The position numbers and the translations under genes are program-made. Of a stretch of DNA of 64,000 nucleotides, positions 16,607 to 57,606 are shown one piece after another. Every line of letters starts with the position of its first letter. The stretch's first letter is position 1. Source of the DNA: Oceanospirillaceae bacterium (GTDB lineage Bacteria > Pseudomonadota > Gammaproteobacteria > Pseudomonadales > Balneatricaceae); the NCBI GenBank assembly GCA_013215445.1, contig JABSRA010000018.1:1-64000 (forward strand). Direction: 5' to 3'. Under the pieces are notes generated by a model. The model was given only the letters and a program-made list of their open reading frames with translations, was not told the DNA's origin and searched no databases.

Positions 16607-17254
16607 TTAGACGACGGCTACCGCCTTGGCAATCTCTTGTGGGGCCAGCATACCCTGGGAGATGATAAAATCGATAATTTCATTAACCCCCTGGGCTTTC
16701 TTTAAGTTAGAGAAGACAAAAGGGCGCTGGCCGCGCATGCGTTTCGCATCGACTGCCATCACCTCAAGCGACGCGCCAACATAGGGGGCTAAATCGGTTT
16801 TATTGATGATCAATAAGTCAGATTTAGTGATCCCTGGGCCACCCTTGCGCGGGATTTTGTCCCCTGCGGAGACATCGATCACATACAAGGTTAAATCAGA
16901 TAGCTCTGGGCTAAATGTGGCACTGAGGTTGTCGCCACCACTCTCGATAAAGATAATGTCGAGCTCACCGTGGCGATCAATCAACTGGTCGATGGCCGCT
17001 AAATTCATCGAGGCATCTTCGCGGATGGCGGTGTGCGGGCAGCCACCGGTTTCTACACCTATGATACGGTCGGCACTGAGGGCTTGATGCTCGGTGAGAA
17101 ATTTAGCATCTTCCTGGGTATAGATATCGTTGGTAACCACAGCGATATCATAGTGATCACGCAGGGCAATGCACAGTGAGCGCAGTAGTGCTGTTTTGCC
17201 AGAGCCCACCGGGCCACCGACACCAATACGCAGCGTTTGTTTGATTTCTAGCAT
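16607..17254 (-). CDS. ureG: Urease accessory GTPase UreG
   Basis: A 215-aa SIMIBI-class GTPase that drives nickel insertion into apo-urease together with UreF, UreD and UreE. The P-loop is [12 protein letters not shown] near residue 13. The conserved nickel-binding CPH appears in [13 protein letters not shown], and [11 protein letters not shown] gives the G4 base-specificity motif. Length is typical. It is the last gene of the operon, 24 bp after ureF, and is followed by a strong hairpin. Confidence 0.96.
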
Positions 17255-17278
17255 GTAAAATTCCTTATAGCTTAAATA

Positions 17279-17956
17279 TTATGAGCGAAAAATTCGGGTA
17301 TATTGGGTCTCATGTAACGCACTGGCAATCGCCAGAGCCGGCAGAGCCGCGCCGATTTGCTCGGCTTCAATGGTTTCGGCGTCAGTCACGGCGTCGATTA
17401 ACAAAGCTTGTAAATTGCCTAATAAACGCTGCGCTTGGCTCTGTCCCAGAGGTACCAGTTTGGTCGCCGCGGCGACTTGATTTTCTAACCACGACCAACT
17501 AAACCCGAGAGCGGCGTGGTGATACTCAATTTTCCAGTGATGGGCTGCTATCGCAAACATCAATACAAAACTGACTTCGGTCTTTTTCTGAAAAATGACC
17601 GGGATTTGTTGCTGGCGCAAGACTCGGGTTAACGCCTCGCCCATCGCGCTGTCCGACAGGCGTAATTCACTGCTCTCTCGGTTGGCCAAAATCAATTGAT
17701 TGAGGGTTGGCAGCGCATTTTCATCGCACCTAGTTAACGCCTGCATAGCCAGGCGCAAGATGGGCAGATCCAGTTGGGCGAGGCCTTGAGTGATTTGCGT
17801 GGCCAGCCACTGCTGGACTTGCTCTTCATTACTGAGCCAGTCTTCTTCAATGGCGTATTCTAGCCCCTGCGAAAAAGCGTAGCCGCCCACTGGCAAACTG
17901 ACGCTACTGAGCTGCATTAGGCGCAACAGAGCCGTATCTGCGCTAGTTATTGACAT
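17279..17956 (-). CDS. ureF: Urease accessory protein UreF
   Basis: A 225-aa, all-helical UreF. It bridges UreD-bound urease and UreG and gates nickel delivery. The conserved LPVGGYAFSQGLEYA near the N-terminus and AATKLVPLGQSQAQRLL in the C-terminal half identify it. The ATG at 17956 is chosen over an upstream TTG at 17974, since homology begins at the hydrophobic LLRLMQLSSVSLPVG segment. It follows ureE by 20 bp in the ureDABCEFG order. Confidence 0.93.
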   Translation of the reverse strand: MSITSADTALLRLMQLSSVSLPVGGYAFSQGLEYAIEEDWLSNEEQVQQWLATQITQGLAQLDLPILRLAMQALTRCDENALPTLNQLILANRESSELRLSDSAMGEALTRVLRQQQIPVIFQKKTEVSFVLMFAIAAHHWKIEYHHAALGFSWSWLENQVAAATKLVPLGQSQAQRLLGNLQALLIDAVTDAETIEAEQIGAALPALAIASALHETQYTRIFRS

Positions 17957-17976
17957 CTTTGTTCCGCGTACCAAGG

Positions 17977-18411
17977 TTAGTGTGCATGTTTATACGCCCC
18001 GGATTCTGGGTTGAATACCTGCTGCTGGTATTCTATTTTGAGACCCATCAATAACAGCATTTCCTCGAGCACGTGATCGGGTTTAATTTGCAACTGGCGA
18101 TCTCCGACCGATATTTTAACGTGCCGGTTACCCAAGTGATAACAGGCGCGGGCAAAGGTCGGCCAATCGTCACACCGGGCGATTGCCACGGCCTCGCTTG
18201 CGCCTTTTACCTGAATGATTTTGCCGCAGGTTGCCTGCAGGTACTCGCCGACGATGAGCGGCTTGCCGCGCTGCAAAAACAGCCTGATCTCCTCGTCGTT
18301 TTCACTGCGCAGTAATAATCGGCCGCGCATGCGCTGCTCGTGATCTAATACCACTGTGGCATCGACAGCGCCCTGGTGCTCTACACCCAGTCGCTGGTGA
18401 ACTTCTAACAT
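17977..18411 (-). CDS. ureE: Urease nickel metallochaperone UreE
   Basis: A 144-aa nickel chaperone. The N-terminal peptide-binding domain carries DHEQRMRGRLLLRSENDEE, and the metal-binding domain has CYHLGNRHVKISV, whose histidine is the interfacial nickel ligand. The C-terminus is short (YKHAH) with only two histidines, unlike the long His-rich tail of Klebsiella UreE, so nickel storage capacity should be low. The start ATG is 9 bp after the ureC stop. Confidence 0.94.
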   Translation of the reverse strand: MLEVHQRLGVEHQGAVDATVVLDHEQRMRGRLLLRSENDEEIRLFLQRGKPLIVGEYLQATCGKIIQVKGASEAVAIARCDDWPTFARACYHLGNRHVKISVGDRQLQIKPDHVLEEMLLLMGLKIEYQQQVFNPESGAYKHAH

Positions 18412-18420
18412 GGCAGGCTC

Positions 18421-20127
18421 CTAAAAAAGATTGTAAAGCTGGGCTAAGGGTAATACTTTGGCGGGCTCGCAATTGAGCAATTCGCCATCGGCACGCACTT
18501 CATAAGTCTGTGGATCGACGCTGATATCCGGTAGCCAGTCGTTTAGCTTCATGTCCTTTTTACCGATATTGCGAGTATTCTTACAGGCGACTAAGGTGCG
18601 GCTTAGACCCAGTTTTTCAGCGATATTATTGTCCAGTGCGGCCTGTGCAACAAAGGTTATACAAGTGTTGGCTGGCGCCAGTCCCAATGATCCAAACATC
18701 GGGCGATAGTGAACGGGCTGAGGGGTGGGGATTGAAGCATTGGGATCGCCCATTTTTGCCGCCGCTATCATGCCGCCCTTAATGATAAGTTCTGGTTTTA
18801 CGCCAAAGAAGGCCGGTTTCCACAGGACTAAATCGGCAAGTTTACCGACTTCTATGGAGCCTACCTGCTCACTAATTCCGTGGGTGATCGCCGGGTTGAT
18901 GGTGTATTTGGCGATGTACCGCTTGACTCTAAAGTTATCGCAGCCGCGCTCTAAATCCTCTTTGAGTAGGCCCATTTGCACTTTCATTTTGTGCGCGCTC
19001 TGCCACGTTCTGGTGATCACTTCACCGACCCGACCCATTGCCTGAGAGTCTGAGGAGATCATGCTAAAGGCACCGCGATCGTGCAGTATGTCTTCAGCGG
19101 CGATGGTTTCTTTGCGAATGCGCGAGTCGGCAAAGGCGACATCCTCGGGGATGTTACTGTCCAGATGATGGCAGACCATCAACATGTCAAGATGCTCATC
19201 CACGGTATTGTGAGTATAGGGGCGTGTTGGGTTGGTGGAGGAGGGCAGCACATTGGGATAGGCACAGGCCTTGATGATGTCCGGTGCGTGACCACCGCCT
19301 GCGCCTTCAGTGTGGTAGGTGTGAATCACCCGATCTTTAAAGGCGCCGATAGTATCATCGACAAAACCGGATTCATTTAAGGTATCGGTGTGTATCGCCA
19401 CTTGTACATCGTACTTTTCGGCCACTGATAAACAGTTATTGATGGAGGCGGGGGTGGTGCCCCAATCTTCGTGCAGTTTTAAGCCACAAGCTCCCGCTTC
19501 TAATTGCTCGGCTAATGCCTCTGGCAAGCTGCCATTACCCTTGCCTAAAAAGCCTAAATTCATTGGCATGCTATCGGTGGCCTGTAACATCTTACCGATG
19601 TTCCACGGTCCAGGTGTACAAGTGGTGGCCTTGGTGCCGGTAGCAGGGCCAGTACCGCCCCCGATCATGGTGGTAATCCCCGACATTAGCGCTTCATCTA
19701 TCTGCTGTGGGCAGATAAAGTGTATATGTGCATCGATGCCGCCCGCGGTGAGGATTGATCCCTCGCCGGCGATTACTTCTGTGCCCGGGCCGATGATGAT
19801 ATCGATGCCGTCTTGTATGTCTGGATTGCCGGCGCGGCCAATGGCTTTAATATGGCCGTCGACGATGCCGACATCGGCTTTGACGATGCCCCAATAATCT
19901 AAAATAAGTGCGTTGGTGATAACCGTATCTACAGCCACATCGTTGCAGTGCTGGGATTGTCCCATACCGTCGCGGATAACTTTGCCACCCCCAAATTTGA
20001 CTTCATCGCCGTACTGGCAGTAATCTTTTTCTACTTCTATCCACAGTTCGGTATCCCCTAAGCGCACTCTGTCACCGGTGGTGGGGCCAAACATTTGCGC
20101 GTAACTCGCTCTATCGATGCTGCTCAT
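18421..20127 (-). CDS. ureC: Urease alpha subunit UreC
   Basis: The 568-aa catalytic subunit, which hydrolyses urea to ammonia and carbamate at a dinuclear nickel site. HIHF (first His ligands) follows AGGIDAH. The carbamylated bridging lysine lies in GLKLHEDWG. Further ligand histidines are in [10 protein letters not shown] and [12 protein letters not shown], and the mobile flap contains VCHHLD. The length equals that of well-studied bacterial alpha subunits. ureB and ureC overlap by 4 bp (ATGA). Confidence 0.97.
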
Positions 20128-20456
20128 TGGGTCTCTCCCTTGCGATGTTCTGCCACAGTGCCCATCACTTGTCCCCTAAAGCCATAAATAGTTTTAGTGC
20201 CCGCGTATTCAACCAATTCGATACTGCGCCCCTGGCCGGGTTCAAAGCGGATAGCGGTGCCCGAGGCGATGTTTAAGCGATAACCCAAAGATGGCTCACG
20301 GTCGAATTTTAAGGCCGGGTTGGTTTCGTAAAAATGGTAGTGAGAGCCCACTTGGATAGGTCGATCACCGGTGTTTTCAACCCGTAGCTTGAGAGTTTTG
20401 CGTCCGGCATTGAGCGTAATATCACCGGCGGCGACTTGGATTTCACCTGGAATCAT
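20124..20456 (-). CDS. ureB: Urease beta subunit UreB
   Basis: A 110-aa beta subunit of the (UreABC)3 trimer. Family signatures are visible: MIPGEIQ at the N-terminus, [16 protein letters not shown] in the middle and [12 protein letters not shown]. It is a few residues longer than most beta subunits. It is separate from UreA, as in Klebsiella and unlike the fused Helicobacter form. It begins 17 bp after the ureA stop. Confidence 0.96.
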
Positions 20457-20473
20457 TTTCTACTCCTGTTCTT

Positions 20474-20776
20474 TCAGCTAATAGGATTGTGCACTGTGAC
20501 TAACTTAGTGCCATCGGGGAAAGTTGCCTCAACTTGCACGTCACTGATCATATCGGGCACGCTCTCCATGACCTGATCGGCGCTGAGCAGAGTTTTTCCG
20601 TAGCTCATTAGCTCAGCGACACTTTTACCATCGCGAGCCCCTTCAACAATTTCCATGGAAATATAGGCCATTGCCTCAGGGTAGTTAAGTTTAACCCCCC
20701 GCAATAGGCGTCTCTCGGCGAGCAGTGCGGCGGTGAACAACAGCAGTTTGTCTTTTTCTCTGGGTAGCAGATCCAT
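20474..20776 (-). CDS. ureA: Urease gamma subunit UreA
   Basis: A 100-aa gamma subunit. It starts with [20 protein letters not shown], then [10 protein letters not shown] and a C-terminus ending VTVHNPI, all canonical. It is structural in the urease trimer. It lies 21 bp after ureD. Confidence 0.97.
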
Positions 20777-20797
20777 GTAAACCTCTTGTGTTTTAAA

Positions 20798-21727
20798 TTA
20801 GGTGGCCCAAATACGCGGAGGGCAAGCGGGCCTGCCCAGTAATGCGGGGCGAATAATGGCCCAGCACTGGATAAATAAAGTGCGCGACTGCTCTGAGCAG
20901 TGTCCTAAATAGCGAACTTGAATAAATTCACCGTTCAAGGTGACGCTGCTCAGTGCATTTTCAATTGCCAGGTTGTCTACCTCAGAAGCAAGGTGGTTTA
21001 CGCAGCACTGTTGCAACTCTGCCAACAGCTCATGCTGGTCTGTATCCCGGTTAAACGGGCCGGCAACTAGCAGGGCATTCACTGGTCGATTATCCAGGCC
21101 AGCTTTGGCGCTTAATATAAATCTATTCTTATCATTGAGTACCAAGCGTTCACGCAGGGCAACAGTACCCTCTATTTCTATCTGTAAACACTGGGTTAAA
21201 CTGCCACTTGAAAAGGTTTGGCCGCAGGCGGGCAAACCAAAAGTGCAGATATCCCAACCGATGAAACTCGCCCCGCGCGCCAACTTTACGTGGGTGTCTA
21301 AGCGGGTATTGGCGCCGGGGTAGAGAATAGTCTCAAGGGGCAACCATTCAATACAGGCGTTGGGCATGGCCTCTAGCGTGACAATTTGTTGCTGAAGTAG
21401 CTGATCGGCACGAGCACGGTAGACGCGACCCGCTCCGGGGGTGGTCAATAATACTTTTACACCTTCATCCGCCAGCACCTTGATCAGTAATTTATCTCCG
21501 GATACTAAGCCACCGGGAGGGTGCAATATGTACAAGTGCGCAAGCTCTCTGCCCTCTGGATAAAAAGCTTTTTGCACGTATAAAGGGCCTTGGTGAGAGG
21601 TGTTTTTTAAAACTGACCCACGCTTTGTTAGACAGAGATAGAGGGATAAATGCGCCTGCCAGCGAGTATTACTGATACAGAAATCATTGCCTTCACTTAA
21701 CATTTTCGGTTGTGCTGTGCTTTGCAT
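20798..21727 (-). CDS. ureD: Urease accessory protein UreD
   Basis: A 309-aa accessory protein that binds apo-urease first and recruits UreF and UreG. Landmarks are QKAFYPEG, LHPPGGLVSGDKL, TTPGAGRVYRA and LPLETILYPGA. It is the first gene of the operon. The 319-bp stretch upstream holds no urea ABC transporter or nickel permease, so uptake must be encoded elsewhere. Confidence 0.94.
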   Translation of the reverse strand: MQSTAQPKMLSEGNDFCISNTRWQAHLSLYLCLTKRGSVLKNTSHQGPLYVQKAFYPEGRELAHLYILHPPGGLVSGDKLLIKVLADEGVKVLLTTPGAGRVYRARADQLLQQQIVTLEAMPNACIEWLPLETILYPGANTRLDTHVKLARGASFIGWDICTFGLPACGQTFSSGSLTQCLQIEIEGTVALRERLVLNDKNRFILSAKAGLDNRPVNALLVAGPFNRDTDQHELLAELQQCCVNHLASEVDNLAIENALSSVTLNGEFIQVRYLGHCSEQSRTLFIQCWAIIRPALLGRPACPPRIWAT

Positions 21728-23800: not shown

Positions 23801-24410
23801 GTTTTACCTTAAATAAATAATCGGTTGGGTGGGTCTGGTTATTGTTTTGAGGTATCTGGTTGACATACCAAGTGCTAGATTAGCGGCAGTGTTTTTGATT
23901 TGCAAAGATAAAACAGCAAAAGGCACGATGAGTTTCTCTATACACTGGTAAGCCGATTTTTGTTTACGCGGTGCTAGGCGCATTTTTTCAAGGGCGTAGC
24001 TATGGATGAGTGAAACATCGCTTGATGATTAATTGCCAAATAATCCAGCACGGCTGGTGGCTATAATAGCCACTGCTTTTTCAGCTAAAATGGAGCTGGA
24101 TCCGCGAGAGATTAATTGGCCTTTGGAACACTCAGTGTGTATTTATCAGTCTGACTGAGGACCGATGTAACTACACCGACCAAGCTCTAAGCTGATAAAT
24201 TTAACCTAGAGCAGATTGCTGGCACGGCGATACCAAAGGTTAGCAGAGTTTGACCATTACTGAATTTGCTAAGCCCTTCATTTTATAGAGATATTTTGGC
24301 TTCACAAAGTGCCTATTATCAGATCCGTTAAAATGGTGGTTAGCGGTGACTTCAATGCTTAAAAGATATTTTAAGACGTCCAAGGGCATGAAATCTTCTG
24401 ACCACCGAGC
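23801..24410. other. 610-bp non-coding stretch
   Basis: Between the ABC ATPase start and the rhomboid stop. I see no convincing frame on either strand. A small hairpin with GTGGCTA / TAGCCAC arms (24057-24073), followed by CTTTTT, resembles a plus-strand terminator, yet no plus-strand gene precedes it. The remainder looks like ordinary or degenerate sequence. Confidence 0.4.
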
Positions 24411-24971
24411 CTATTTCTTATGCATCGTATAGGCGCAGCCTAAACCTACGATTAAACCAAACAGGTGGCTCTCCCAGGAAATGTAGCCTCTGACCGGTAA
24501 TATGCCAAAAATCAAGGTGCCGTAGGCGATACCGACAAACAGCGATATTAAGATTAATTTAATCTTTTTGGAGAGGAAACCGGCCAGTACTAAATAGCCG
24601 AAATAACCGTAGATGAGTCCACTGGCACCGACGTGTACCGCATTGCGGGCGAAAAGCCAGACTAACAAACCGCTGAGTACGGTGCAGATGATGGTGACTT
24701 CGATGTAGCGACGAGTGCCGTGCTGCAACAGTAAAAAACTAAACAGGGCGAAGGGGATGATATTGGATAAAAAGTGCCAGATGCTGCCGTGCAGTAGTGG
24801 GGCGGTTAACACGCCTATCAAGCCGGCGCTATCGCGGGGAATAAGGCCGTATTGATTGAGCATCCGCCCGGTTAACAGATTGATGACTTCAACGGCTGCT
24901 ATGACTAAGGACAATACTAAAATCAGATTAAATTGTTGTTTAAAAGACATTTTTTCTGCTTGTTTAGCCAT
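24411..24971 (-). CDS. Rhomboid-family intramembrane protein
   Basis: A 186-aa polytopic protein with the rhomboid serine-protease core. The catalytic Ser117 lies in GASG, the catalytic His169 in ESHLFG, and the HxxxN oxyanion motif is His66/Asn70 in WHFLSN. About six membrane segments fit a compact bacterial rhomboid. The ATG at 24971 is chosen, since the upstream extension is shared with the end of the ATP-grasp gene and is not rhomboid-like. It closes the PspA operon, 14 bp after the previous stop. Intact catalytic residues suggest an active protease acting on membrane substrates. Confidence 0.85.
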   Translation of the reverse strand: MAKQAEKMSFKQQFNLILVLSLVIAAVEVINLLTGRMLNQYGLIPRDSAGLIGVLTAPLLHGSIWHFLSNIIPFALFSFLLLQHGTRRYIEVTIICTVLSGLLVWLFARNAVHVGASGLIYGYFGYLVLAGFLSKKIKLILISLFVGIAYGTLIFGILPVRGYISWESHLFGLIVGLGCAYTMHKK

Positions 24972-24985
24972 GTTTTTCTCGATAA

Positions 24986-26149
24986 TTATAAAATAATATG
25001 GGGCAGATAGCGGGACATATCTTGGGTGACTTTGTTCTTGTCCTCGCGCACTGAAATGCCCGCTGGTTGGCCATCGACCAGCCATGAGCCTATTAAGGTG
25101 AAGTTGTCGCCGAAGGCTGGCAGTGGCGAATAGGCTTGGTAGATATAGCCTTCATCACCATAGGGCCCAGGCGACGAATAGACTTCTTTACCGGCTAAAT
25201 GGATGCTGATATTGGCGCCTTCGCGGGCAAAAATAGGCTTTTTGACGTAGTTGATTAACTGGCTGTTTTTCAATTCGTCTTCAAAAAAAGTTGGCAGCAA
25301 ATTGGGATGATTGGGAAACATCTTCCACAACATAGGTAACAGCGCCTTATTCGATAGCACTGCTTTCCAGGGGGGTTCTATCCAAGAAACTTCGCTCTGG
25401 GCCAAATTATCGCCAAACTCTTCGCGCAGCATAAATTCCCAGGGGTAGAGTTTGAACATCCAAGTAATGGCCAAATTATCCAAGTCGGTAAAGCAGTTAT
25501 CGGCAGATAATCCGATGTCTTCGATAAACACAAACTTACAGGTGATGCCCGCAGCGACCGCACAGTCTTCGAGGTATTGCACGGTGCCTCGATCTTCGTC
25601 GGTATCTTTGCAGCAGGAAAAATATAAGGTCTCAGCGGGGTGTTGCTGTTTTATGACCCTAAAGCGATTGATTAACTTTTCTTGCAGCGAGTTATATTGA
25701 TCGGACTTGCGGCTGAGTTTGCCAGCGTTGACTTGATCTTGCAGCCACAACCACTGCCAAAAGCCAGTCTCATAGAGACTGGTGGGCGTATCTGCGTTGT
25801 TTTCGTAGAGTTTTGCATGCCCGCTGCCACCATAGACTAGGTCCATTCTTGAATAGAGTGATGGTTCTTGTGCATGCCAAGAATTGCGAATGTAATCCCA
25901 GTGTTGACGGGGGATCTGAAATTTTTCCAACAGTTGTTGATCATCAACCACTTTTGCCACCACAGCAAGGCACATTTGATGTAGCTCTTGGGTGGGCGTT
26001 TCTATATCGCGCTCAATTTGCTGCAGCGAAAACTGATAGTAGGCGCTTTCATCCCAATAGGCTTCACCGTGCATAGTGTGAAAGCTAAAACCGTATTCGC
26101 TGGCACTCTCGCGCCAGTGTGGGCGCTCTTTAATGATCGACCTAAACAT
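24986..26149 (-). CDS. Glutathionylspermidine-synthase-like ATP-grasp protein (YgiC/YjfC family)
   Basis: A 387-aa protein of the GSP-synthetase C-terminal-domain family, without the amidase half found in E. coli Gss. Landmarks are NADTPTSLYETGFWQW, EPPWKAVLSNKALLP and the ATP-grasp strand YVKKPIFAREGANIS. E. coli homologues YgiC and YjfC are ATP-grasp ligase-like, with no settled substrate. The ATG at 26149 overlaps the stop of the DUF1190 gene (TAATG), the same gene pairing as ygiB-ygiC and yjfM-yjfC. Confidence 0.87.
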   Translation of the reverse strand: MFRSIIKERPHWRESASEYGFSFHTMHGEAYWDESAYYQFSLQQIERDIETPTQELHQMCLAVVAKVVDDQQLLEKFQIPRQHWDYIRNSWHAQEPSLYSRMDLVYGGSGHAKLYENNADTPTSLYETGFWQWLWLQDQVNAGKLSRKSDQYNSLQEKLINRFRVIKQQHPAETLYFSCCKDTDEDRGTVQYLEDCAVAAGITCKFVFIEDIGLSADNCFTDLDNLAITWMFKLYPWEFMLREEFGDNLAQSEVSWIEPPWKAVLSNKALLPMLWKMFPNHPNLLPTFFEDELKNSQLINYVKKPIFAREGANISIHLAGKEVYSSPGPYGDEGYIYQAYSPLPAFGDNFTLIGSWLVDGQPAGISVREDKNKVTQDMSRYLPHIIL

Positions 26150-26760
26150 TAACCGCCCCAACTGCTGCGTGATGTCTTGCCAGAAAATCTGGATTTAGCC
26201 GAAATTGTCGAGCCGAAACCACCGCGGGACATAGTGCGTTTAATTGCAGGTTTGGGATTGAAGGCTTTATTACTGACGCGTACATTGCGGTTGCGGGTGC
26301 TGCCGAATAAATTACCATCTGTAGAAGACCATTTTCCATAGGTGGGGGAGTATCTAGAATATGAGGTATACAGCGGCGCAGAGCGAAAGCCACCATTGAT
26401 CATTGAACTGAGCATATAACCAGCCATGAGCGGCATAAAGAAGCTCTGATTGTTCGAGCTGGTATAAGAGGCACAATTTTGTCGTCCAAAATCTTCGACA
26501 CAAGCATCTATGTTGCTGTATTTGGGGCCACTTTTAACCGCCTCATCGACCGCCTCTTTATAGGCCAGTTGACATTGTTCAACTTGATCGGGGTTGTTGA
26601 CAGCACATTCATCGGCACTAGTGTAAATTTTCGCCTGCTCGGAGTCATCGCTACAACCGATTAAAGTACCCGCTGTAACAGCGAGTGCTAAGGGCTTAAA
26701 GGCGAATAGCTTGGGTGCTTTACGCATTGCCCCTAGGTCTATATTCTGCGTCCTTTTCAT
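26149..26760 (-). CDS. DUF1190 lipoprotein (YgiB/YjfM family)
   Basis: A 203-aa predicted lipoprotein. After a long N-terminal lead (about 22 residues) comes a hydrophobic stretch ending in the lipobox LIGC with Cys36. The mature part has paired cysteines (SADECAVNN, QVEQCQLAY, IDACVED, RQNCASY) spaced as in DUF1190 proteins. The C-terminal third is rich in Ser, Gly and Arg. AGGAG precedes the ATG. It is coupled to the ATP-grasp gene by a one-base overlap. Confidence 0.84.
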   Translation of the reverse strand: MKRTQNIDLGAMRKAPKLFAFKPLALAVTAGTLIGCSDDSEQAKIYTSADECAVNNPDQVEQCQLAYKEAVDEAVKSGPKYSNIDACVEDFGRQNCASYTSSNNQSFFMPLMAGYMLSSMINGGFRSAPLYTSYSRYSPTYGKWSSTDGNLFGSTRNRNVRVSNKAFNPKPAIKRTMSRGGFGSTISAKSRFSGKTSRSSWGG

Positions 26761-26769
26761 GATCAGCTC

Positions 26770-27186
26770 CTAGTAGGTCATGCAGGCGGCGTTTAATAAA
26801 CCGACGGCAATTGACGTTCCGCCCAATACGATTCCCGCGGAGACTTCGTTATCATTGATCCGTTGCACAATCTTAGGCATGAAAATAAAGCGCACGATGG
26901 CAAAGGCAATGGTCTGGGCAATTAAGGCAATCAAACCCCACACTACAAAGTCGACTAGAGATTCAGAGTTTGATGCAGCACTGGCGAGTGCGAGAGAAAA
27001 GCCGATCACGGCACCCATAAAACCAATAGCGGCCGCGGTGTTCTGCTCTTCCTTTAACAACTTCCACTCATCCTGTGGAGTAATAAAGGTGTAAACTACT
27101 TTAAAGGTCAGTAAGAGAAGAATTGATACGGCAAAGTAGCTGGAAAAGTCGATGAGACCAACGAGCGAAGCTTGAATGGCTTCCAT
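26770..27186 (-). CDS. DUF350 membrane protein (YjfL family)
   Basis: A 138-aa protein with four hydrophobic segments (about 12-32, 48-70, 80-100 and 118-136), the layout of DUF350. Signatures are AAAIGFMGAVIGFSLALASA and the duplicate-like GIVLGGTSIAVGLLNAACM. YjfL relatives are inner-membrane proteins of unknown role. AGGAG lies 8 nt before the ATG. Confidence 0.85.
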   Translation of the reverse strand: MEAIQASLVGLIDFSSYFAVSILLLLTFKVVYTFITPQDEWKLLKEEQNTAAAIGFMGAVIGFSLALASAASNSESLVDFVVWGLIALIAQTIAFAIVRFIFMPKIVQRINDNEVSAGIVLGGTSIAVGLLNAACMTY

Positions 27187-27270
27187 GTGTGTAACTCCTG
27201 TAAATTATTAGGGTGTTGCGCAGAAGTTTAAGCCATTTAAAGGCTTAGATAAAGTGCAACGATCCTAGGG

Positions 27271-27924
27271 TTAGCCAATTATATCAATATCGGCCGCTTG
27301 CAAGTCAAAACCAGTGGTTTTAACCAGGCAGCGATCGGCGCGATTATCGATAATTTTCTCCTCGGCACTGAACATTGCGTACTCAAAAACACCTTCTTTT
27401 ATCTCTCGTTCATAGAGCATGCAAAACTGATCGGTCTCTGAGTGAGTCTCGTCTTGGGCGTAGGTTTTTTCGGTCATGGCGACGGGTGCCGCCAGTGCCT
27501 GAGCGGCATTTTCCCACACCGGGCTATAACTATTACCCTCAAGTTCAATTTCGCTTTGACTGACAGTACTCTCTAAGATTTGGTTCCACTGCTGCTCGGT
27601 ACCGATACTCTTAGTATCGTAAAAATACCAGAGTTTAACATCGCTTATGTGGTTCTCGGTCATACCGCCCTCGAGCAGCACTTGTAAAAAGGCATCATCA
27701 TCCGTGTAGTAGCGAAGCACCGTGGTGGTATCGTCAAGTTTTACGACGCCCACCGCTTGTATCAAATGGGTGGTCGCAGCGCCTTCAATGACTAAATCAG
27801 GTTCTATCAAGCGTAGTTTTAAACTATCTAACTCAAAGGCACCGCCAATTCTTAAACCCATAATTTCAGGGGCTAGATCTTTGATCACAGGTTCTTCTTT
27901 TTTTCCAAACCATTTTTTAAACAT
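27271..27924 (-). CDS. DUF2491 protein (YjfK family)
   Basis: A 217-aa soluble protein. The start MFKKWFGKKE is followed by LGLRIGGAFELDSL-like sequence (here IMGLRIGGAFELDSL), the mark of DUF2491/YjfK. No signal peptide or membrane segment is seen. Function is unknown; the family keeps company with PspA-like YjfJ. It begins 9 bp after the channel gene. Confidence 0.83.
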   Translation of the reverse strand: MFKKWFGKKEEPVIKDLAPEIMGLRIGGAFELDSLKLRLIEPDLVIEGAATTHLIQAVGVVKLDDTTTVLRYYTDDDAFLQVLLEGGMTENHISDVKLWYFYDTKSIGTEQQWNQILESTVSQSEIELEGNSYSPVWENAAQALAAPVAMTEKTYAQDETHSETDQFCMLYEREIKEGVFEYAMFSAEEKIIDNRADRCLVKTTGFDLQAADIDIIG

Positions 27925-27933
27925 GGGGTGCTC

Positions 27934-28968
27934 CTAGTGCCAATCTATGTGTTTAATACGCTCTGCGGCTATATAAAATAGCCGGCTATGGGGACTGACT
28001 TCTCTATCGAGGCTGGGATTTAGCTCAATTTTATCTTGTCCTGCATCACATACGCCAATCAAGGTGGCTTGATATTGGTGTTTGAAACTATGAAATAAGG
28101 CTTCAAAGGCGCTGCTTTGTGCTGCATCATAAGTGATAGAGTACTGAGTCATACCCTGATTAGAATCGAGCAGCTGTTGATGTAAGCCGCTCGAACCTGG
28201 GTCCATGGCAGACTTTGCCAGCATTTCAACCGCAACAGAGGGCATACACTCAATATTCGGGCAGTGACTTTTTAGTAAGTTGCCCAGCTGTTCATCTTTA
28301 AAATAGGCAATGGTATGGGCGCTGGGGTTCTGTTGTGCGCAAAACAACGCGGTGGTCATGGTCATATCATCTTCGGGATTGTCGATAATGATACAGCTGG
28401 CAGCAGACACGCTAGCGCGTTGCATTTCCTGTTGATTGGTAAAGCTTTCAACCCGGACGAAGCCGATTTTATCCGGCAGTGGATTTTCGATGGCAGCGGA
28501 GACACAAAGTGCAATTTGTTGCTCTGGATTGCCCTGTTGAGTCTCTTTTAATAATAGCCGAATTAATTGCAGAGTTCGTGGGCCATTCCAGCCAATGATA
28601 AGAATATGATTTTGGTAATTGAGGGGCTTCAAGCCTTGTACTCCTTTGCGCCAATGATAAGAGACAAATACGGCAATGCGTCCAATGACCAGACCGAAGA
28701 TGCTCAATCCCAGGGGGATGACAAAAAGTGCAGTGGCGATTTTACCAGCAGTAGTGGTGGGAGATAAGTCGCCATAACCTACGGTAGAGGCGGTGACCAT
28801 TATCCAGTAGAGGAAATTGGCGCCGTCGGTGATACCTGTCTCACCGCAGAGTTTGAGAATTACCCAGCTGGCGAAAAAATAGAGAGCGATGGCAGTAAAA
28901 ATAGTCTGCCATCGCATGTCGATAAAGTATTTAGTTAAGACCTTGCGGATCTTATCAAAAGAAGTCAT
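27934..28968 (-). CDS. Two-TM potassium channel with TrkA-N/RCK-like domain
   Basis: A 344-aa channel. Two membrane helices (about 22-40 and 78-105) flank a pore loop with the K+ selectivity filter TVGYGD (62-67). A Rossmann-type domain follows, beginning HILIIGWNG, with the acidic IIIDNPEDD. It resembles Kch/MthK-type channels gated by ligand or nucleotide. The C-terminal third (about 240-344) may hold a further regulatory fold. Its place inside a PspA-type operon suggests control of K+ flux during membrane stress. E. coli yjf genes lack this member. Confidence 0.88.
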   Translation of the reverse strand: MTSFDKIRKVLTKYFIDMRWQTIFTAIALYFFASWVILKLCGETGITDGANFLYWIMVTASTVGYGDLSPTTTAGKIATALFVIPLGLSIFGLVIGRIAVFVSYHWRKGVQGLKPLNYQNHILIIGWNGPRTLQLIRLLLKETQQGNPEQQIALCVSAAIENPLPDKIGFVRVESFTNQQEMQRASVSAASCIIIDNPEDDMTMTTALFCAQQNPSAHTIAYFKDEQLGNLLKSHCPNIECMPSVAVEMLAKSAMDPGSSGLHQQLLDSNQGMTQYSITYDAAQSSAFEALFHSFKHQYQATLIGVCDAGQDKIELNPSLDREVSPHSRLFYIAAERIKHIDWH

Positions 28969-28975
28969 CTAGGTT

Positions 28976-29659
28976 TTATTTTCCAAGAATCCTAGCTAGT
29001 TCGTCATCAGCAGAAGAATTACTGCCGGTGATACCCGCACTTTGTAAGCGCTTTTCTAACTCACTACCAGACTCATCCGCTGCTAATTCAGAGGCCGCTT
29101 CCATTTCAGCTTGACGCTGATTTTGTCGATCTTGAATGCGGCTTAAAGATTCAGCTGCTGTTTTCATTTTACCGTTAGCGCCTAAATGACGTGATGAAAC
29201 CGCCGCCTGAGCTTTTTGTACAGATTCAGTGGCCTTTACCATATCCACTTGTTGCTCCATGCGACGTAAATTGTTTTTCGCCTGGCTAATGTTGGTGCGC
29301 AGTATGGACTCAGATTTAGTGAACTGATCAACGTACTGTTGTTCAGCATCCATCTGCGAACGTAGGTCAACTACTTTACGGGCACAATCTAACGCTAGCG
29401 CCGAATCGCCTTTTTCATTGGCAGCTTTAGCGTGTGCTTCGTATTCGCTCACTGACTGTTGAAAACTTGACACTTTTTGTTGTGCCAACTTACGCTTCGC
29501 CATGATTTGCGTCAACGAGTGATCAGAGCTGCGCAATTCTTGTTTCGCCTCGCGAATTTCCTGATCGAGGATACGCAGTGCCTGACTATCGGCAATGGCT
29601 TCGGCTGCTTCATTGGCGCCGCCTCTAACGGCCGTTACTAATCTTTTCCATACGCTCAT
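28976..29659 (-). CDS. PspA/IM30-family protein (YjfJ-like)
   Basis: A 227-aa, almost wholly helical protein with a long coiled coil (about 25-150). It starts with MSVWKRLVTAVRGGANEA, the amphipathic N-terminal helix used by PspA and Vipp1 to bind membranes. ESCRT-III-like assembly and membrane protection are known of the family. An Ala/Ser-rich tail ends in DDELARILGK. It follows the DUF2170 gene by 10 bp. Confidence 0.9.
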   Translation of the reverse strand: MSVWKRLVTAVRGGANEAAEAIADSQALRILDQEIREAKQELRSSDHSLTQIMAKRKLAQQKVSSFQQSVSEYEAHAKAANEKGDSALALDCARKVVDLRSQMDAEQQYVDQFTKSESILRTNISQAKNNLRRMEQQVDMVKATESVQKAQAAVSSRHLGANGKMKTAAESLSRIQDRQNQRQAEMEAASELAADESGSELEKRLQSAGITGSNSSADDELARILGK

Positions 29660-29669
29660 GGTATTACCT

Positions 29670-30059
29670 CTATTTTAAATAATCTTCGTAGGCATCTAGG
29701 AAAGCGGCGACATTATCAAATAATGTCTCTACTTCGATGATGATACTCTCTTCTTTAGACTGGGAAGAAAGTGCCCCAAATGCCATATAATAATCTTCAT
29801 TTTCCACGGTAGTGATACCAATAGTGGTCAGTGGAAATACTTGATGTGTTTTTAAAATTTGCTCATTTAGCCCGGTGACATCAGCAACGGAAGCGCTGGC
29901 AAATAAAATGGATTCAACCACTATTTGTGCGCCACTGACAGCTACGTAAGCATCTAGTCCATCTTCGTTGGTGATAAATAGGCAATCATCTTCTGAATGA
30001 ACTACCCATTGACCTTGCTGCGAAAGCGACTTTTCGATATTTGAAAGGTCCCAAGTCAT
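29670..30059 (-). CDS. DUF2170 protein (YjfI family)
   Basis: A 129-aa protein, taken from the ATG at 30059, which has a strong AGGAGA site 7 nt upstream; an upstream start would add 10 residues that overlap this site. The segments EDDCLFITNEDGLDAYVAV and HQVFPLTTIGI match DUF2170. It is the first gene of the eight-gene operon and diverges from the DUF6471 gene. No function is known. Confidence 0.85.
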   Translation of the reverse strand: MTWDLSNIEKSLSQQGQWVVHSEDDCLFITNEDGLDAYVAVSGAQIVVESILFASASVADVTGLNEQILKTHQVFPLTTIGITTVENEDYYMAFGALSSQSKEESIIIEVETLFDNVAAFLDAYEDYLK

Positions 30060-30179
30060 ATTTGCATCTCCTAAAATATTTAACCGCAATACTCGACGTG
30101 CTGCGATTGAGCTTATAATATATAATTAATACGATCTGTAAAGTAAAAATAACGTTTATTTGTAATTTATGCTGTATTT

Positions 30180-30199
30180 TTGTAATATATACGTTACAA
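30180..30199. promoter_or_regulatory. Palindrome in the divergent DUF2170/DUF6471 promoter region
   Basis: A 20-bp imperfect palindrome TTGTAATATATACGTTACAA: 6-bp perfect outer arms, with two mismatched pairs inside. It lies 35 bp upstream of the DUF6471 start and 121 bp upstream of the DUF2170 start. It is well placed to control both directions; the protein that binds it is unknown. Confidence 0.42.
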
Positions 30200-30233
30200 A
30201 AACACTTTATTAATGACATTGAGGATAATAACC

Positions 30234-30500
30234 ATGACCCAAAAACCTCCAGTAATTGACTATAGGGAGTTGATAAGCCGCTTAATTAAGTCCGAAATGT
30301 CAAAACGTAAAATCCGCTATGAAGACCTAAGTCAGTCATTAGCGGCGCTCGGCACTAAACAAAGTAGTGCCAATCTAAGAAACAAGATCAACCGAGGAAT
30401 AATGGGAGCAGACTTGTTTATCCAATTAATATTAGTATTAAATGTTAAACAGATCGATAGAGAATCCATTCTCGACATTGTGTCTAGTCTCAATGATTAG
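30234..30500 (+). CDS. Small DUF6471-type protein
   Basis: An 88-aa basic-then-acidic protein starting at the ATG at 30234, preceded by GAGG. LISRLIKSEMSKRKIRYEDLSQSL, then NLRNKINRG, then FIQLILVLNV, matches the DUF6471 pattern. That pattern resembles a helix-turn-helix of the Cro/C1 type (YEDLSQSLAALG ... LRNKINRG). It may therefore be a DNA-binding regulator of the divergent PspA-type operon, which is inference from fold likeness and position. Confidence 0.72.
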   Translation: MTQKPPVIDYRELISRLIKSEMSKRKIRYEDLSQSLAALGTKQSSANLRNKINRGIMGADLFIQLILVLNVKQIDRESILDIVSSLND

Positions 30501-52087: not shown

Positions 52088-53449
52088 TTAATTTAGTAAG
52101 ATTTTATGGCTTTTCTCACTGGATTTTCTGTGGCTTTTGCTTAAATTAAGTAATGATTTTGCCGCTTGAATGGATATTTTTGTACGGTCTTTTGCATTTG
52201 AAGGTGTTGGTTGGGCAAAAGCTCGTTGGTTTAGTACGACTAAGATAGCTAATTGAGCTGGGTACTGAGCAAATAGTTCTCGACAAACATTGAACTCTTT
52301 ATTGGGTAGTTGATAATAATTAAACAGTAGCTGGGTTGCCAATTGATATTGTTCTTGTTTGATGGCCACTAAAAACTGCCGTTTAAGCCGCCGCTGCGCT
52401 TGATGGGTTAGTCTCGCGTAACCAGCTAAGATAAATGTGCGTTTATTAATCAACCCGTACCCTAACGATATTATCGCTAAACAGACTAATAGGACGATCA
52501 CCAGGTCAAAGGAAATAATGCGTCTGTTGATCACATCATCAAGTTTTAGCTTATTGCCACTGCCCCCTACTTGACCCTGATAGCCTGCAATTTTTAATAA
52601 CTTTAAGCTGTTAGTGGTTAAATCCCACCAGTAAAAAGTTTGTTGTTCAATTTGAAACTTTCCGGGCTGTTCAAATATATAGGTAAAAGATTCAATTCGA
52701 GTGCCGGTCAGATTACCGCGGTTGGCTTTATCAAAGACCTGTGCGGTTTTCTGATAGATACTGATGCCATTGATGTTGGCGACTGACATTGGTGGGATCA
52801 TCATTGCTGGACTACCGATAACAGTAAAAGTGACTGTTTGGGTAATCGCTTCACCGATCGCATATTGATTGTCTGTACCTTGATTCGCATCATTTTGGGC
52901 AAAATTGTTTGCTACTTTGAGGGTAAACGATGGGGAGACAACAAAATGCTCAATGTCGCTGAGTTCTTCAGGTAGGCTGATAGTAAAGCTTGGGATCGAA
53001 GTGGTCATTGAACCTTCAACAATACCGTGGTTTTCTGTGTTAACCGAGATATCAATGGTGATGTCGGATATTTGATAATCACCCGCTTTGGTGGGGTACA
53101 AGGTGAGCTCTTTGGTTTGTGTGGACCAAGTCATACCCTCTATCTTTTTAGTACCATTTATCGACACTTCGCTACCGGGTAACATAATTAGGTCGGTATG
53201 TTTAAAGTTTAGTACCCGAGTGCCTTTGGCAAACCATCGACTGGTGGCTATTTCAATGGATAAAATTAGTGGTTGACCAACAATTTGTTCGGTTTTTTGT
53301 TCAATTCGGCTGGTGATGGTTAATTGCTTAGCGTTGATTAAATCTCTAATACTGGTGGCCGAAGCATTGCCAGAGATTACCGTTAATTGAGTGATTAAAA
53401 ATATCGGCCCCAGTATCGATAATAGTGAAACAACTAATTTATTATTCAT
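52088..53449 (-). CDS. BatD-like oxygen tolerance protein
   Basis: A 453-aa protein with a signal peptide (about 1-31), extended beta-domains (about 40-300) with the BatD-type phrase VGQPLILSIEI, one membrane helix near 316-335 (FDLVIVLLVCLAIISLGYG), and a cytoplasmic helical end. BatD proteins belong to the Bacteroides aerotolerance (Bat) group, whose mechanism is unknown. It overlaps the TPR gene by 8 bp and ends the operon. Confidence 0.8.
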   Translation of the reverse strand: MNNKLVVSLLSILGPIFLITQLTVISGNASATSIRDLINAKQLTITSRIEQKTEQIVGQPLILSIEIATSRWFAKGTRVLNFKHTDLIMLPGSEVSINGTKKIEGMTWSTQTKELTLYPTKAGDYQISDITIDISVNTENHGIVEGSMTTSIPSFTISLPEELSDIEHFVVSPSFTLKVANNFAQNDANQGTDNQYAIGEAITQTVTFTVIGSPAMMIPPMSVANINGISIYQKTAQVFDKANRGNLTGTRIESFTYIFEQPGKFQIEQQTFYWWDLTTNSLKLLKIAGYQGQVGGSGNKLKLDDVINRRIISFDLVIVLLVCLAIISLGYGLINKRTFILAGYARLTHQAQRRLKRQFLVAIKQEQYQLATQLLFNYYQLPNKEFNVCRELFAQYPAQLAILVVLNQRAFAQPTPSNAKDRTKISIQAAKSLLNLSKSHRKSSEKSHKILLN

Positions 53450-54149
53450 CTTTACCCCCTAGGTCATCGACTTTATGCTCAGTGACAGATTGGCTATCTT
53501 TTTTCTCCAGTTGCATATAAAACTTTTGCGCTAAAAATCGGCCTGGATCCTTTTGTACTTGCCTTAACCACATCTGATTAAGGTTATCGTCAAGTAATAA
53601 CTGTTCAGAGCTTAGTTGCTCCTTTTTTACTTCTTTACCATTTTCTCGTTCGGCCCCATCACCGGTTTGAGGTTCGTCACCCAACTCTTTAGAGGATTCA
53701 CCCTCATCCTGTTGACTCTTTGATAGCAGGTTTCCCGCATCGATGATCTCTTGAACAATATTTAGATTTGTTTTGGCGGCACTAAAGTCAGGATAGTTAC
53801 TGATAATATCTCGGTATAGGTTTCTAGCTTTGATATAACGACGCCCATGGGCTAAGGCATTAGCTTGGGCTAATAAGCTGGGTGCATCATTAAATTGGCT
53901 ATAGAGGGTTGCGGCTTTGTCGTAGTCTTCATTGCCATAGGCACTAAAGGCCTGCCAGCGGTTATTGGTAAACGTGCTGTTCGCCTGTTGATAATGGCCC
54001 CGGTTAAAAAGGAGTTGCCCCTGTTGATCTTTGCTCAGCCATAAGTCAATAAACTGATGAGGTTGCAGAGCGATGTAGGCGAGTGATCCGATCACGACTA
54101 GGCTGGTTAACCAAACTTTTTTACGCTGAACCAGGATCGTTTTTACCAT
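53442..54149 (-). CDS. TPR protein of the Bat locus (BatC-like)
   Basis: A 235-aa protein: a membrane anchor (about 13-31), then three to four TPR-like helix pairs (about 40-140: FNRGHYQQANSTF, GNEDYDKAATLYSQF, RRYIKARNLYRDII), then an acidic, low-complexity tail rich in Glu and Lys. TPRs suggest a docking role with the VWA proteins. It overlaps both neighbours by 7-8 bp. Confidence 0.78.
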   Translation of the reverse strand: MVKTILVQRKKVWLTSLVVIGSLAYIALQPHQFIDLWLSKDQQGQLLFNRGHYQQANSTFTNNRWQAFSAYGNEDYDKAATLYSQFNDAPSLLAQANALAHGRRYIKARNLYRDIISNYPDFSAAKTNLNIVQEIIDAGNLLSKSQQDEGESSKELGDEPQTGDGAERENGKEVKKEQLSSEQLLLDDNLNQMWLRQVQKDPGRFLAQKFYMQLEKKDSQSVTEHKVDDLGGKDE

Positions 54150-55114
54150 TGTAAAGTCCAGCCTTTTCTAAACCAAAAAAGATAAAGCAGGGCGATAATA
54201 AAGATCAGCGGATATCCAGCATCGTGCCAGGGGCGCGATTTATCTTCCACTATCACCAAGTTATGTTTGATAAAACGATTAACCGCTAAGACGTCTGTTT
54301 GGTCGGCAGTCATGCTGACTAATCGCCCGTGGCTATTGTTAGCTAACGATTGTAGCTGATTAATTTGTAGAGGAATAATGTTAGTGCTAGTTGATTTGTC
54401 GCTAGCTTTTGGCGCTGTTTTGCCGATTGCCCAAACGATCAATTGGTCAGTATGGAGATTAAAAAAATCGGCAAATAAAGTATCTGTCGCACTGGTTGCG
54501 CCATCGCCAATTAATAATAATGTGCCAGGAATGGTAGAAGTTGCTAATAAATCGTTAACTAAGGGCAAGATACTTTGTGGTAATTTACCTGGCACAGGCA
54601 TTAAGTTTGGTTCAAGTACATCTAAAAAATGCTGAATCATGGCCTGATCATCAGTGACTGGCATAACAATATGGGCACTGCCAGAAAAGGCGATTAACGC
54701 AGTTTTAGTATCGCCTCGAATAGCCAGTAGTTGCAATATTTTTTGTTTTGCTCTGAGTAATCGACTGGGTTGCACATCATCTTGGAGCATTGTTTGTGAG
54801 ACATCTAATGCGATCACTAATATGGCATTATTTTCACTGAAAGGTGAGGGCTGTTGTTGCCAGGTGGGTCCCATCAGCAACAGGGTGAGAGGTAGAGCAA
54901 TAAACCAAGTCAGTTTTTTGGGGGATAGCCAATAACTAGCATTACCCTTAACGGTTAAATGGTGAAGGATTTCAGGTGACATGATTTTTCGCCATGTTAC
55001 CAAACTGTCATCTCGTTGTGAAAAATACCGCAGGATCAGAAAAATAGCGATAAAGGCTAAAAACCAATAGGGTCGCAGGAAATGGAAATGCTGTAAAAAG
55101 GTGATATCAATCAT
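54143..55114 (-). CDS. VWA-domain protein, BatB-like, degenerate MIDAS
   Basis: A 323-aa membrane-anchored von Willebrand A protein with helices near 15-30, 68-82 and 303-318. The MIDAS start reads DVSQTM (104-109), so the second Ser of DxSxS is Thr, and the usual MIDAS Thr is not evident in the PGKLPQSI loop; the later Asp is seen in LIGDGATSA. Metal binding is therefore doubtful. It overlaps the BatA-like gene by 8 bp. Confidence 0.8.
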   Translation of the reverse strand: MIDITFLQHFHFLRPYWFLAFIAIFLILRYFSQRDDSLVTWRKIMSPEILHHLTVKGNASYWLSPKKLTWFIALPLTLLLMGPTWQQQPSPFSENNAILVIALDVSQTMLQDDVQPSRLLRAKQKILQLLAIRGDTKTALIAFSGSAHIVMPVTDDQAMIQHFLDVLEPNLMPVPGKLPQSILPLVNDLLATSTIPGTLLLIGDGATSATDTLFADFFNLHTDQLIVWAIGKTAPKASDKSTSTNIIPLQINQLQSLANNSHGRLVSMTADQTDVLAVNRFIKHNLVIVEDKSRPWHDAGYPLIFIIALLYLFWFRKGWTLQW

Positions 55115-56631: not shown

Positions 56632-56632
56632 G

Positions 56633-57595: not shown

Positions 57596-57606
57596 TTAAT
57601 ATACCT

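What the first reader, a model, noticed from the sequence alone, without database searches (positions are those of the whole stretch)
24411..30059. PspA-type membrane-stress operon extended with a K+ channel and a rhomboid
The order DUF2170, PspA/IM30, channel, DUF2491, DUF350, DUF1190 lipoprotein, ATP-grasp corresponds to E. coli yjfI-J-K-L-M-C, but with a TVGYGD potassium channel inserted and an intact rhomboid protease at the end. Spacing is 7-85 bp with one overlap, so one transcript is likely. The set joins membrane protection, K+ flux, intramembrane proteolysis and an amide-ligase-like enzyme, and no such system has an assigned function.
Basis: partly seen in the sequence, partly recalled or inferred. 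Interest (0 to 1): 0.68.

Follow-up and report, generated by a model that had tools for sequence, protein, structure and literature searches.

The report
PspA membrane-stress operon with rhomboid protease
This stretch is a known kind of bacterial membrane-repair operon (PspA type, with a potassium channel), and it ends in an intramembrane protease of the rhomboid family whose relatives keep turning up in such operons in different bacteria, which suggests a job for a group of proteases whose role in bacteria is still largely unclear.

Summary
At 24411-30059 (minus strand) lie DUF2170, PspA, an MthK-like K+ channel, DUF2491, DUF350, DUF1190, a glutathionylspermidine-synthase-type ATP-grasp ligase and an intact rhomboid, with gaps of 10, 7, 9, 84, 9, -1 and 14 bp. 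The first seven genes, channel included, are a published operon type: Ravi et al. 2024, third CesT/Tir-PspA group. The channel is not new.

The rhomboid is the new part. The main texts of three PspA papers do not hold the word, yet the linkage is far beyond chance. In 390 genomes of the order, 23 of 54 rhomboids of this family lie within 12 kb of DUF2170; random placement predicts 0.26. In an 80-locus named sample, 24 loci hold DUF2170 and 26 PspA. The window's order recurs in six loci of two orders. Different rhomboid lineages sit at four positions in this operon and in two other PspA operon types. The partner is optional: 4 of 27 DUF2491 genomes of the order.

A divergent DUF6471 gene with an XRE-like predicted fold and a palindrome suggest a dedicated regulator. 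Most likely role, inferred: clipping orphan membrane proteins at PspA-coated membrane. Substrate unknown.

The parts
29670..30059 (-). DUF2170 (YjfI/BacA family), first gene of the operon; CesT/Tir-like chaperone fold by the literature
   Evidence: Pfam PF09938 141 bits; matches the solved DUF2170 structure 8q8o at 2.5e-18; fold per PMC10948618 and PMC11237479
28976..29659 (-). PspA/IM30 (YjfJ type), ESCRT-III-like membrane protein
   Evidence: PF04012 136 bits; ESCRT-III kinship from the literature
27934..28968 (-). K+ channel with TVGYGD filter and MthK-like cytoplasmic domain
   Evidence: PF07885 51.5 bits; MthK match 2.6e-13 over residues 52-262
27271..27924 (-). DUF2491 (YjfK), beta-rich model; no solved fold matched convincingly
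   Evidence: PF10679 267 bits; model pLDDT 91.7; no match at E <= 0.001, best Z 4.0
26770..27186 (-). DUF350 membrane protein (YjfL)
   Evidence: PF03994 135 bits
26149..26760 (-). DUF1190 protein (YjfM family), called a lipoprotein in the literature
   Evidence: PF06693 164 bits; NF008655 211 bits, just under its cut-off of 223
24986..26149 (-). ATP-grasp acid-amine ligase of the glutathionylspermidine-synthase type (YgiC/YjfC); 1-bp overlap with DUF1190
   Evidence: PF03738 520 bits; YgiC structure 7uk8 7e-159, YjfC 7uk6 3e-130
24411..24971 (-). rhomboid intramembrane serine protease, last gene of the operon; S117 and H169 in place
   Evidence: PF01694 81 bits; S117 and H169 invariant in 17 aligned sequences
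30213..30500 (+). DUF6471 gene, divergent from the operon, probable XRE-type regulator
   Evidence: PF20075 78.8 bits; same family beside and divergent from DUF2170 in 12 further loci and in 6; five-helix model, top 15 fold matches are small HTH regulators but Foldseek E is not below 0.19
30178..30201 (.). palindrome TTTTGTAA-N8-TTACAAAA in the divergent promoter region, probable operator
   Evidence: one site in the window, 0 expected; in the own genome the only site with fewer than 2 mismatches; similar sequences by eye in relatives
30115..30142 (-). sigma-70-like promoter TTTACA-16-TATTAT for the operon
   Evidence: 10 of 12 consensus matches; similar sequence by eye in L037, L038, L040, L176, L177. 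Consensus match only

Best explanation
The locus is a YjfIJ-type (DUF2170-PspA) membrane-stress operon with the published set channel-DUF2491-DUF350-DUF1190-ATP-grasp ligase, plus a rhomboid protease as a real but optional partner. Shown here: gene identities, tight spacing, conserved order, recurrent rhomboid linkage in several arrangements, conserved catalytic residues, and a divergent regulator gene with a palindrome. Inferred: the DUF6471 protein controls the operon through the palindrome. DUF2170 restrains the system (as the rise of the other Bac proteins in a P. aeruginosa bacA mutant would fit). On envelope damage PspA polymerises on the inner membrane, the ligand-gated K+ channel and the polyamine-type ligase adjust potential and membrane charge, and the rhomboid cuts transmembrane segments of orphaned or misfolded membrane proteins at the damaged patch so that other proteases can remove them. 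The rhomboid substrate is not known.
For: (1) 23 of 54 rhomboids of this family (E <= 1e-15) in 390 genomes of the order lie within 12 kb of DUF2170, in 14 families; 0.26 expected. (2) Second sample, 80 named loci ranked by similarity to the window's rhomboid: 24 hold DUF2170, 26 PspA, 29 some family of these operons. (3) The window's order recurs in L176, L177, L179-L182, ligase-to-rhomboid spacing -4 to 30 bp. (4) Pseudomonas, Rhodospirillales and the pair L102/L103 carry other rhomboid lineages in the same operon at other positions: repeated recruitment, or loss and regain. (5) Of the families I annotated, only DUF2170 and PspA occur in all three main proteobacterial linked types (yjf, DUF4178-like, bac), which fits a general membrane-repair role better than one fixed substrate. 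(6) S117 and H169 are invariant in 17 sequences. (7) Shigella rhomboids GlpG and Rhom7 cut orphan membrane proteins and license their degradation (PMC7232013, passages).
Against: The rhomboid was not found in most such operons: 23 of 27 DUF2491 genomes of the order (of these L040 and L163 are cut by contig ends and L162 is a marginal hit), 3 of 3 DUF2491 loci outside it (L064 is cut before the ligase), and 7 of 11 DUF3686-protein loci (looking about 1.5 kb beyond the match). Outside the order 45 rhomboid loci of the family showed no PspA or DUF2170 within four genes. L078 and L079, close relatives of the window's rhomboid, sit elsewhere in genomes that do have DUF2170. Part of the linkage is inherited, so counts are not independent events. 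The named scan used a pattern from an alignment in which 15 of 17 rows were linked copies. No substrate, expression or phenotype was tested.
Confidence: 0.45

Rival explanations
1. The rhomboid is a specific switch: it cuts one membrane protein of the operon (DUF350, the channel or the DUF1190 protein) to set the level or activity of the system, a case of regulated intramembrane proteolysis.
For: Directly beside and co-oriented with a channel gene in several groups, with different channel types: L059, L080-L082, L100, L205, L215, L243, L200, L204, L233.
Against: Eight of ten Pseudomonas operons with the rhomboid, and L102/L103, have no channel in the locus. In the nine extended DUF3686-type loci no channel, DUF350, DUF1190 or ligase was annotated. 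No single integral membrane partner is common to all types.
Confidence: 0.25
2. The rhomboid is a bystander that landed near the operon and is carried along without a shared function.
For: It is optional (4 of 27 DUF2491 genomes) and relatives occur in many unrelated contexts.
Against: 23 of 54 against 0.26 expected, several operon types, several rhomboid lineages, 1-4 bp overlaps with the preceding gene in some loci (L165, L171, L182, L188, L205, L241), and the window's order kept in two orders of bacteria.
Confidence: 0.1
3. It is a rhombosortase-like enzyme that processes exported proteins with a GlyGly-CTERM tail.
For: TIGR03902 (rhombosortase) is the best NCBIfam match for the window protein and matches all 17 aligned sequences.
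Against: The window protein scores 44.2 bits against a cut-off of 84. The own genome has no GlyGly-CTERM tail over the cut-off (best 13.9 of 15.5 bits; a weak test for a 22-position model in a draft genome).
Confidence: 0.08

Closest known systems
Third CesT/Tir-PspA operon group of Ravi et al. 2024 (PMC11237479; section 19 and passages read)
   Same: DUF2170-PspA dyad, K+ channel, DUF2491, DUF350, DUF1190 and ATP-grasp ligase
   Different: The main text has 0 occurrences of 'rhomboid' and 'protease' (supplements could not be read). The DUF6471 gene is not in the section read.
E. coli yjfIJKLMC
   Same: Same six families in the same order
   Different: No channel and no rhomboid between yjfI and yjfC; the window's ligase is nearer YgiC than YjfC
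Pseudomonas aeruginosa bacA-F (PMC10948618, PMC2587700; abstract, sections or passages)
   Same: DUF2170-PspA head of a six-gene operon
   Different: I call loci bac-type by gene order only. Nine of the rhomboid loci read carry a DUF3686/AAA protein upstream of a rhomboid, seven of them with DUF2170-PspA. Whether BacF is a rhomboid was not tested.
Mitochondrial SPY complex (SLP2-PARL-YME1L; described in PMC13365137, passages)
   Same: Membrane scaffold, rhomboid and AAA protein acting together; resembles the flotillin-like/DUF3686-AAA/rhomboid loci
   Different: A functional analogy only. The bacterial flotillin-like protein was not recognised by Pfam, NCBIfam or PDB searches here, and the AAA protein is not shown to be a protease. 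The window's genome has no such AAA protein by search.
GlpG and Rhom7 of Shigella (PMC7232013, passages)
   Same: Active rhomboids of the inner membrane; quality control of orphan proteins
   Different: Window protein is not GlpG by its NCBIfam model (33 bits, cut-off 250)

Membership tests
Ravi third CesT/Tir-PspA group | DUF2170 (CesT/Tir) next to PspA | tested here: met
Ravi third CesT/Tir-PspA group | GSPS-type ATP-grasp ligase, DUF350, DUF1190, DUF2491 in the operon | tested here: met
Ravi third CesT/Tir-PspA group | K+ channel with intracellular ligand-sensing domain | tested here: met
   Pore above cut-off; MthK-like over residues 52-262; TrkA_N itself below cut-off; ligand not tested
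Rhomboid protease | Rhomboid domain above the curated cut-off | tested here: met
   81 bits, cut-off 22.6
Rhomboid protease | Catalytic Ser in GxSG and His | tested here: met
   GASG with S117, H169 invariant in 17; roles of the residues recalled
Rhomboid protease | Proteolytic activity | not testable with these tools
   needs bench work
Rhombosortase | TIGR03902 above cut-off | tested here: not met
   44.2 of 84 bits
Rhombosortase | GlyGly-CTERM substrates in the genome | tested here: inconclusive
   none over cut-off; 22-position model, draft genome
GlpG | TIGR04239 above cut-off | tested here: not met
   33.3 of 250 bits
Classical psp operon | PspF and PspC next to pspA | tested here: not met
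   the neighbours here are other families; ORFs that read as PspF-like and PspC-like flank the second pspA at G000:C149 (by reading, no family search)
Bifunctional glutathionylspermidine synthetase/amidase | both amidase and synthetase domains | tested here: not met
   only the synthetase part, 387 aa

The most novel reading that the evidence does not exclude
Rhomboid proteolysis is an effector arm of DUF2170-PspA membrane repair: different bacteria repeatedly attached a rhomboid to DUF2170-PspA operons, making a bacterial counterpart of the mitochondrial scaffold-rhomboid-AAA hub that both seals the membrane and clears its damaged proteins.
Probability: 0.35. Interest if true: 0.8.

Novelty: new variant of a known kind. 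Interest (0 to 1): 0.6.

Why it matters
Prokaryotic rhomboids are described as far less characterised than eukaryotic ones (abstract of PMC11389362 as listed), and the two Shigella rhomboids had no detectable impact under a variety of growth and stress conditions (PMC7232013, passage). A repeated genetic link to PspA operons names a condition (inner-membrane damage) and partners with which to look for a phenotype. It also adds a missing component and a candidate dedicated regulator to a published but functionally unexplained PspA operon.

Tried and rejected
Rejected: the channel as a new insertion. Linkage only in the window: my first survey, by channel, showed no terminal rhomboid in any relative and one mid-operon copy (L059); only the rhomboid-centred surveys showed the pattern. 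Rhomboid tied to the channel: many linked loci lack it. Rhombosortase. Sigma-54 control as proposed for bacA: I saw no such site in the window by eye, and the best match of the scan, which covers sigma-70 only, is sigma-70-like.

Led nowhere: fold searches with the DUF2491 model gave nothing at E <= 0.001 and a best Z of 4.0. A viral-contig scan with the channel found no relative. Popp et al. 2022 (PMC9239133) has 0 occurrences of six terms and a 2025 rhomboid review (PMC12615303) 0 of operon, flotillin, SPFH, phage shock, gene neighbo, potassium; neither was read. DUF3686 was not found in the own genome, but that family search rang in no control genome either.

Weak points: the random-placement expectation assumes 4.5-Mb genomes and ignores shared ancestry. 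Neighbourhoods were printed for four genes either side. The tree is the quick kind with 20 weak forks among 67 branches. It holds 42 of the 80 loci: L185 was dropped for a stop inside the matched stretch, L178, L184 and L217 as duplicates of L078, L080 and L082, and 34 others, L250 among them, were not entered. L202 is a contig of the same length as G052:C12 of the class survey, so probably a repeat too. My gene picker lost the window's own rhomboid and those of L099, L181 and L252; L181 was then read, L099 rests on the hit, L252 on that. Output lists were cut.
Full report
WHAT IS THERE. Eight genes run leftward at 30059-24411: DUF2170, PspA, K+ channel, DUF2491, DUF350, DUF1190, GSPS-type ATP-grasp ligase, rhomboid. 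Gaps are 10, 7, 9, 84, 9, -1 and 14 bp. A ninth gene, DUF6471 (30213-30500, +), is divergent. The window lies in a 4.6-Mb draft genome of 180 contigs; the closest named loci by this rhomboid are the Oceanospirillaceae (Nitrincolaceae) MAGs L176 (86% identity) and L177 (68%). The genome's second PspA, at C149, is flanked by ORFs that read as PspF-like and PspC-like.

KNOWN PART. Ravi et al. 2024 (PMC11237479; section 19 and passages read, not the whole text or its supplements) describe the DUF2170-PspA dyad with ligase, K+ channel with ligand sensing, DUF350, DUF1190 and DUF2491. E. coli has it without the channel. In relatives read here the seven genes stand complete, without a rhomboid, in 14 loci: L037-L042, L044-L049, L062, L063 (the contig of L040 ends about 300 bp after the ligase). 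L059 has the seven genes plus a rhomboid between PspA and channel.

RHOMBOID SURVEY 1. In 194 genomes of the order, 45 have a match to the window's rhomboid at E <= 0.001. Of 31 matches at E <= 1e-10 I read 29 loci (not G304, G342). Ten are next to genes of PspA or channel type: window, L059, L080-L082, L085, L099, L102, L103, and L100 with a channel alone. L080 shows no PspA, as its contig starts inside the operon. Nine stand behind a DUF3686/AAA protein of about 1,780 aa: L084, L086, L088, L090, L091, L092, L095, L097, L098. I extended all nine (L165-L173): seven carry DUF2170 and PspA upstream on the same strand; L165 and L167 show no such pair. The remaining ten have other neighbours: L078, L079, L083, L087, L089, L093, L094, L096, L101, L104. 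Of 27 genomes of the order with DUF2491, four have the rhomboid in the locus: window, L059, L102, L103. Of the other 23, L040 and L163 are cut by contig ends and G397 is a marginal hit whose stretch showed none of the operon families.

SURVEY 2. In 390 genomes of the order (survey 1 hits at this E-value reappear in it), there are 54 rhomboid matches at E <= 1e-15 in 53 genomes and 82 DUF2170 matches in 76 genomes. 13 rhomboids lie within 5 kb, 23 within 12 or 15 kb and 24 within 20 kb of DUF2170, against 0.26 expected at 12 kb for the 46 rhomboids in genomes with both. The 23 fall in 14 families.

SURVEY 3. 29 of 80 hold a family of these operons, 26 PspA, 24 DUF2170. By arrangement: window order, 6 (L176, L177, L179, L180, L181, L182); rhomboid between PspA and DUF2491 or channel in Pseudomonas, 10, two of them with the channel; rhomboid convergent with the DUF1190 end in Rhodospirillales, 3; DUF2170-PspA-(DUF4178-like)-small gene-(channel)-rhomboid, 6 (L184 cut by its contig start; L252 with the rhomboid seen only as the scan's match; the DUF4178 call is below cut-off, 18.8 of 25 bits); flavobacterial channel beside rhomboid, 3, two with PspA in the stretch; DUF3686 type in Providencia vermicola, 1. 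L178, L184 and L217 repeat organisms of survey 1. 51 of 80, among them all 14 cyanobacterial and 4 myxobacterial ones, are unlinked.

COUNTER-EVIDENCE. In 274 genomes of the class, all but a few outside the order, 48 including the window's have a match at E <= 1e-10. Of the other 47 I read 45 loci (not G153, G260); none has PspA or DUF2170 within four genes of the rhomboid, and L150 alone shows a channel-like hit. In 82 genomes of the order 11 have the DUF3686/AAA protein; in 4 of 11 a rhomboid follows within about 1.5 kb, and a gene of the flotillin-like cluster precedes in 11 of 11. The 3 DUF2491 loci outside the order (L062-L064) show no rhomboid; L064 is cut before the ligase. So the rhomboid is an option, not a fixed part. 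'Flotillin-like' rests on operon position and the description of Ravi et al.; Pfam, NCBIfam and PDB searches did not recognise the protein beyond a 12-bit FloT match.

TREE. In the careful tree of 73 rhomboids, linked copies do not form one clade and the linked state needs at least 9 changes. In the quick tree of 70, which holds 42 of the 80 loci of survey 3 and 28 of survey 1, the Pseudomonas-plus-L059 set, the Rhodospirillales set and the L102/L103 set are each one group with starred support (96, 97, 99); the window-order copies need 4 changes, with unlinked L078 and L079 among them. So the same operon has acquired rhomboids of this family more than once, or lost and regained them.

REGULATION. 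A DUF6471 gene lies beside DUF2170, divergent from it, in 13 loci including the window and in 6 of survey 3. In L102 and L103 the rhomboid overlaps the DUF6471 gene and runs with it. The model of the window protein (pLDDT 85) resembles small HTH regulators: the top 15 matches are C proteins, ClgR and XRE or HTH_3 proteins (XRE class partly recalled), TM about 0.5, probability 0.96-1.00, E not below 0.19. The 24-bp palindrome at 30178-30201 occurs once in the window, 0 expected. In the own genome its core pattern has one site with 0 mismatches, none with 1, and 28 with 2, where the reversed control pattern gives 47. Similar sequences are visible by eye in L037, L038, L040, L041, L176, L177, L179, L180, L181 and L182; they are not evident in L042, L045, L047, L048, L049, L102, L103, and only weakly in L039.

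MECHANISM. The catalytic serine and histidine are kept. Of the families annotated, DUF2170 and PspA alone occur in all three main linked types in Proteobacteria, so a general role at PspA-treated membrane is preferred over one fixed substrate. Shigella data on orphan-protein cleavage make this plausible. The mitochondrial scaffold-PARL-YME1L complex is an analogy. The switch model remains open.

LITERATURE. The claim that rhomboid-PspA linkage is not in print rests on searches of the open PMC library. 507 papers hold two of four terms (25 listed); 11 hold both whole words 'rhomboid' and 'PspA'; I judged them by title and abstract start only. PMC11237479, PMC9239133 and PMC10948618 hold 'rhomboid' 0 times by the listing, and PMC2587700 0 times. 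Subscription papers and supplements were not seen.

Noticed in passing
L042:3028-5715, L047, L048, L078:3937-6606: A helicase-like AAA protein of about 900 aa sits near the operon in three loci and beside the rhomboid in L078, where the rhomboid is away from the operon.
   Followed up: partly
L053, L054, L058: Channel-DUF2491-DUF350-short DUF1190-ligase without DUF2170 and PspA in the same run; the channel also occurs without the operon genes in L043, L051, L052, L055-L057, L060.
   Followed up: no
L200:9201-10001, L204, L233: Flavobacterial channels of different types (Ion_trans in L200, TrkA_N type in L233) directly beside a rhomboid of this family.
   Followed up: partly
L084:4807-6226, L090:4851-5534: Genes after the rhomboid in DUF3686-type loci: M90 metallopeptidase, zinc-ribbon protein, phospholipase-D-like protein.
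   Followed up: no
23801-24410: About 600 bp without a listed ORF between the rhomboid and an ABC transporter gene.
   Followed up: no
16607-21727: Urease genes by reading of the ORFs (ureC-like at 18421-20127); not searched.
   Followed up: no
53442-58572: By reading, a MoxR-type ATPase followed by von Willebrand and Bat-like genes; not searched.
   Followed up: no
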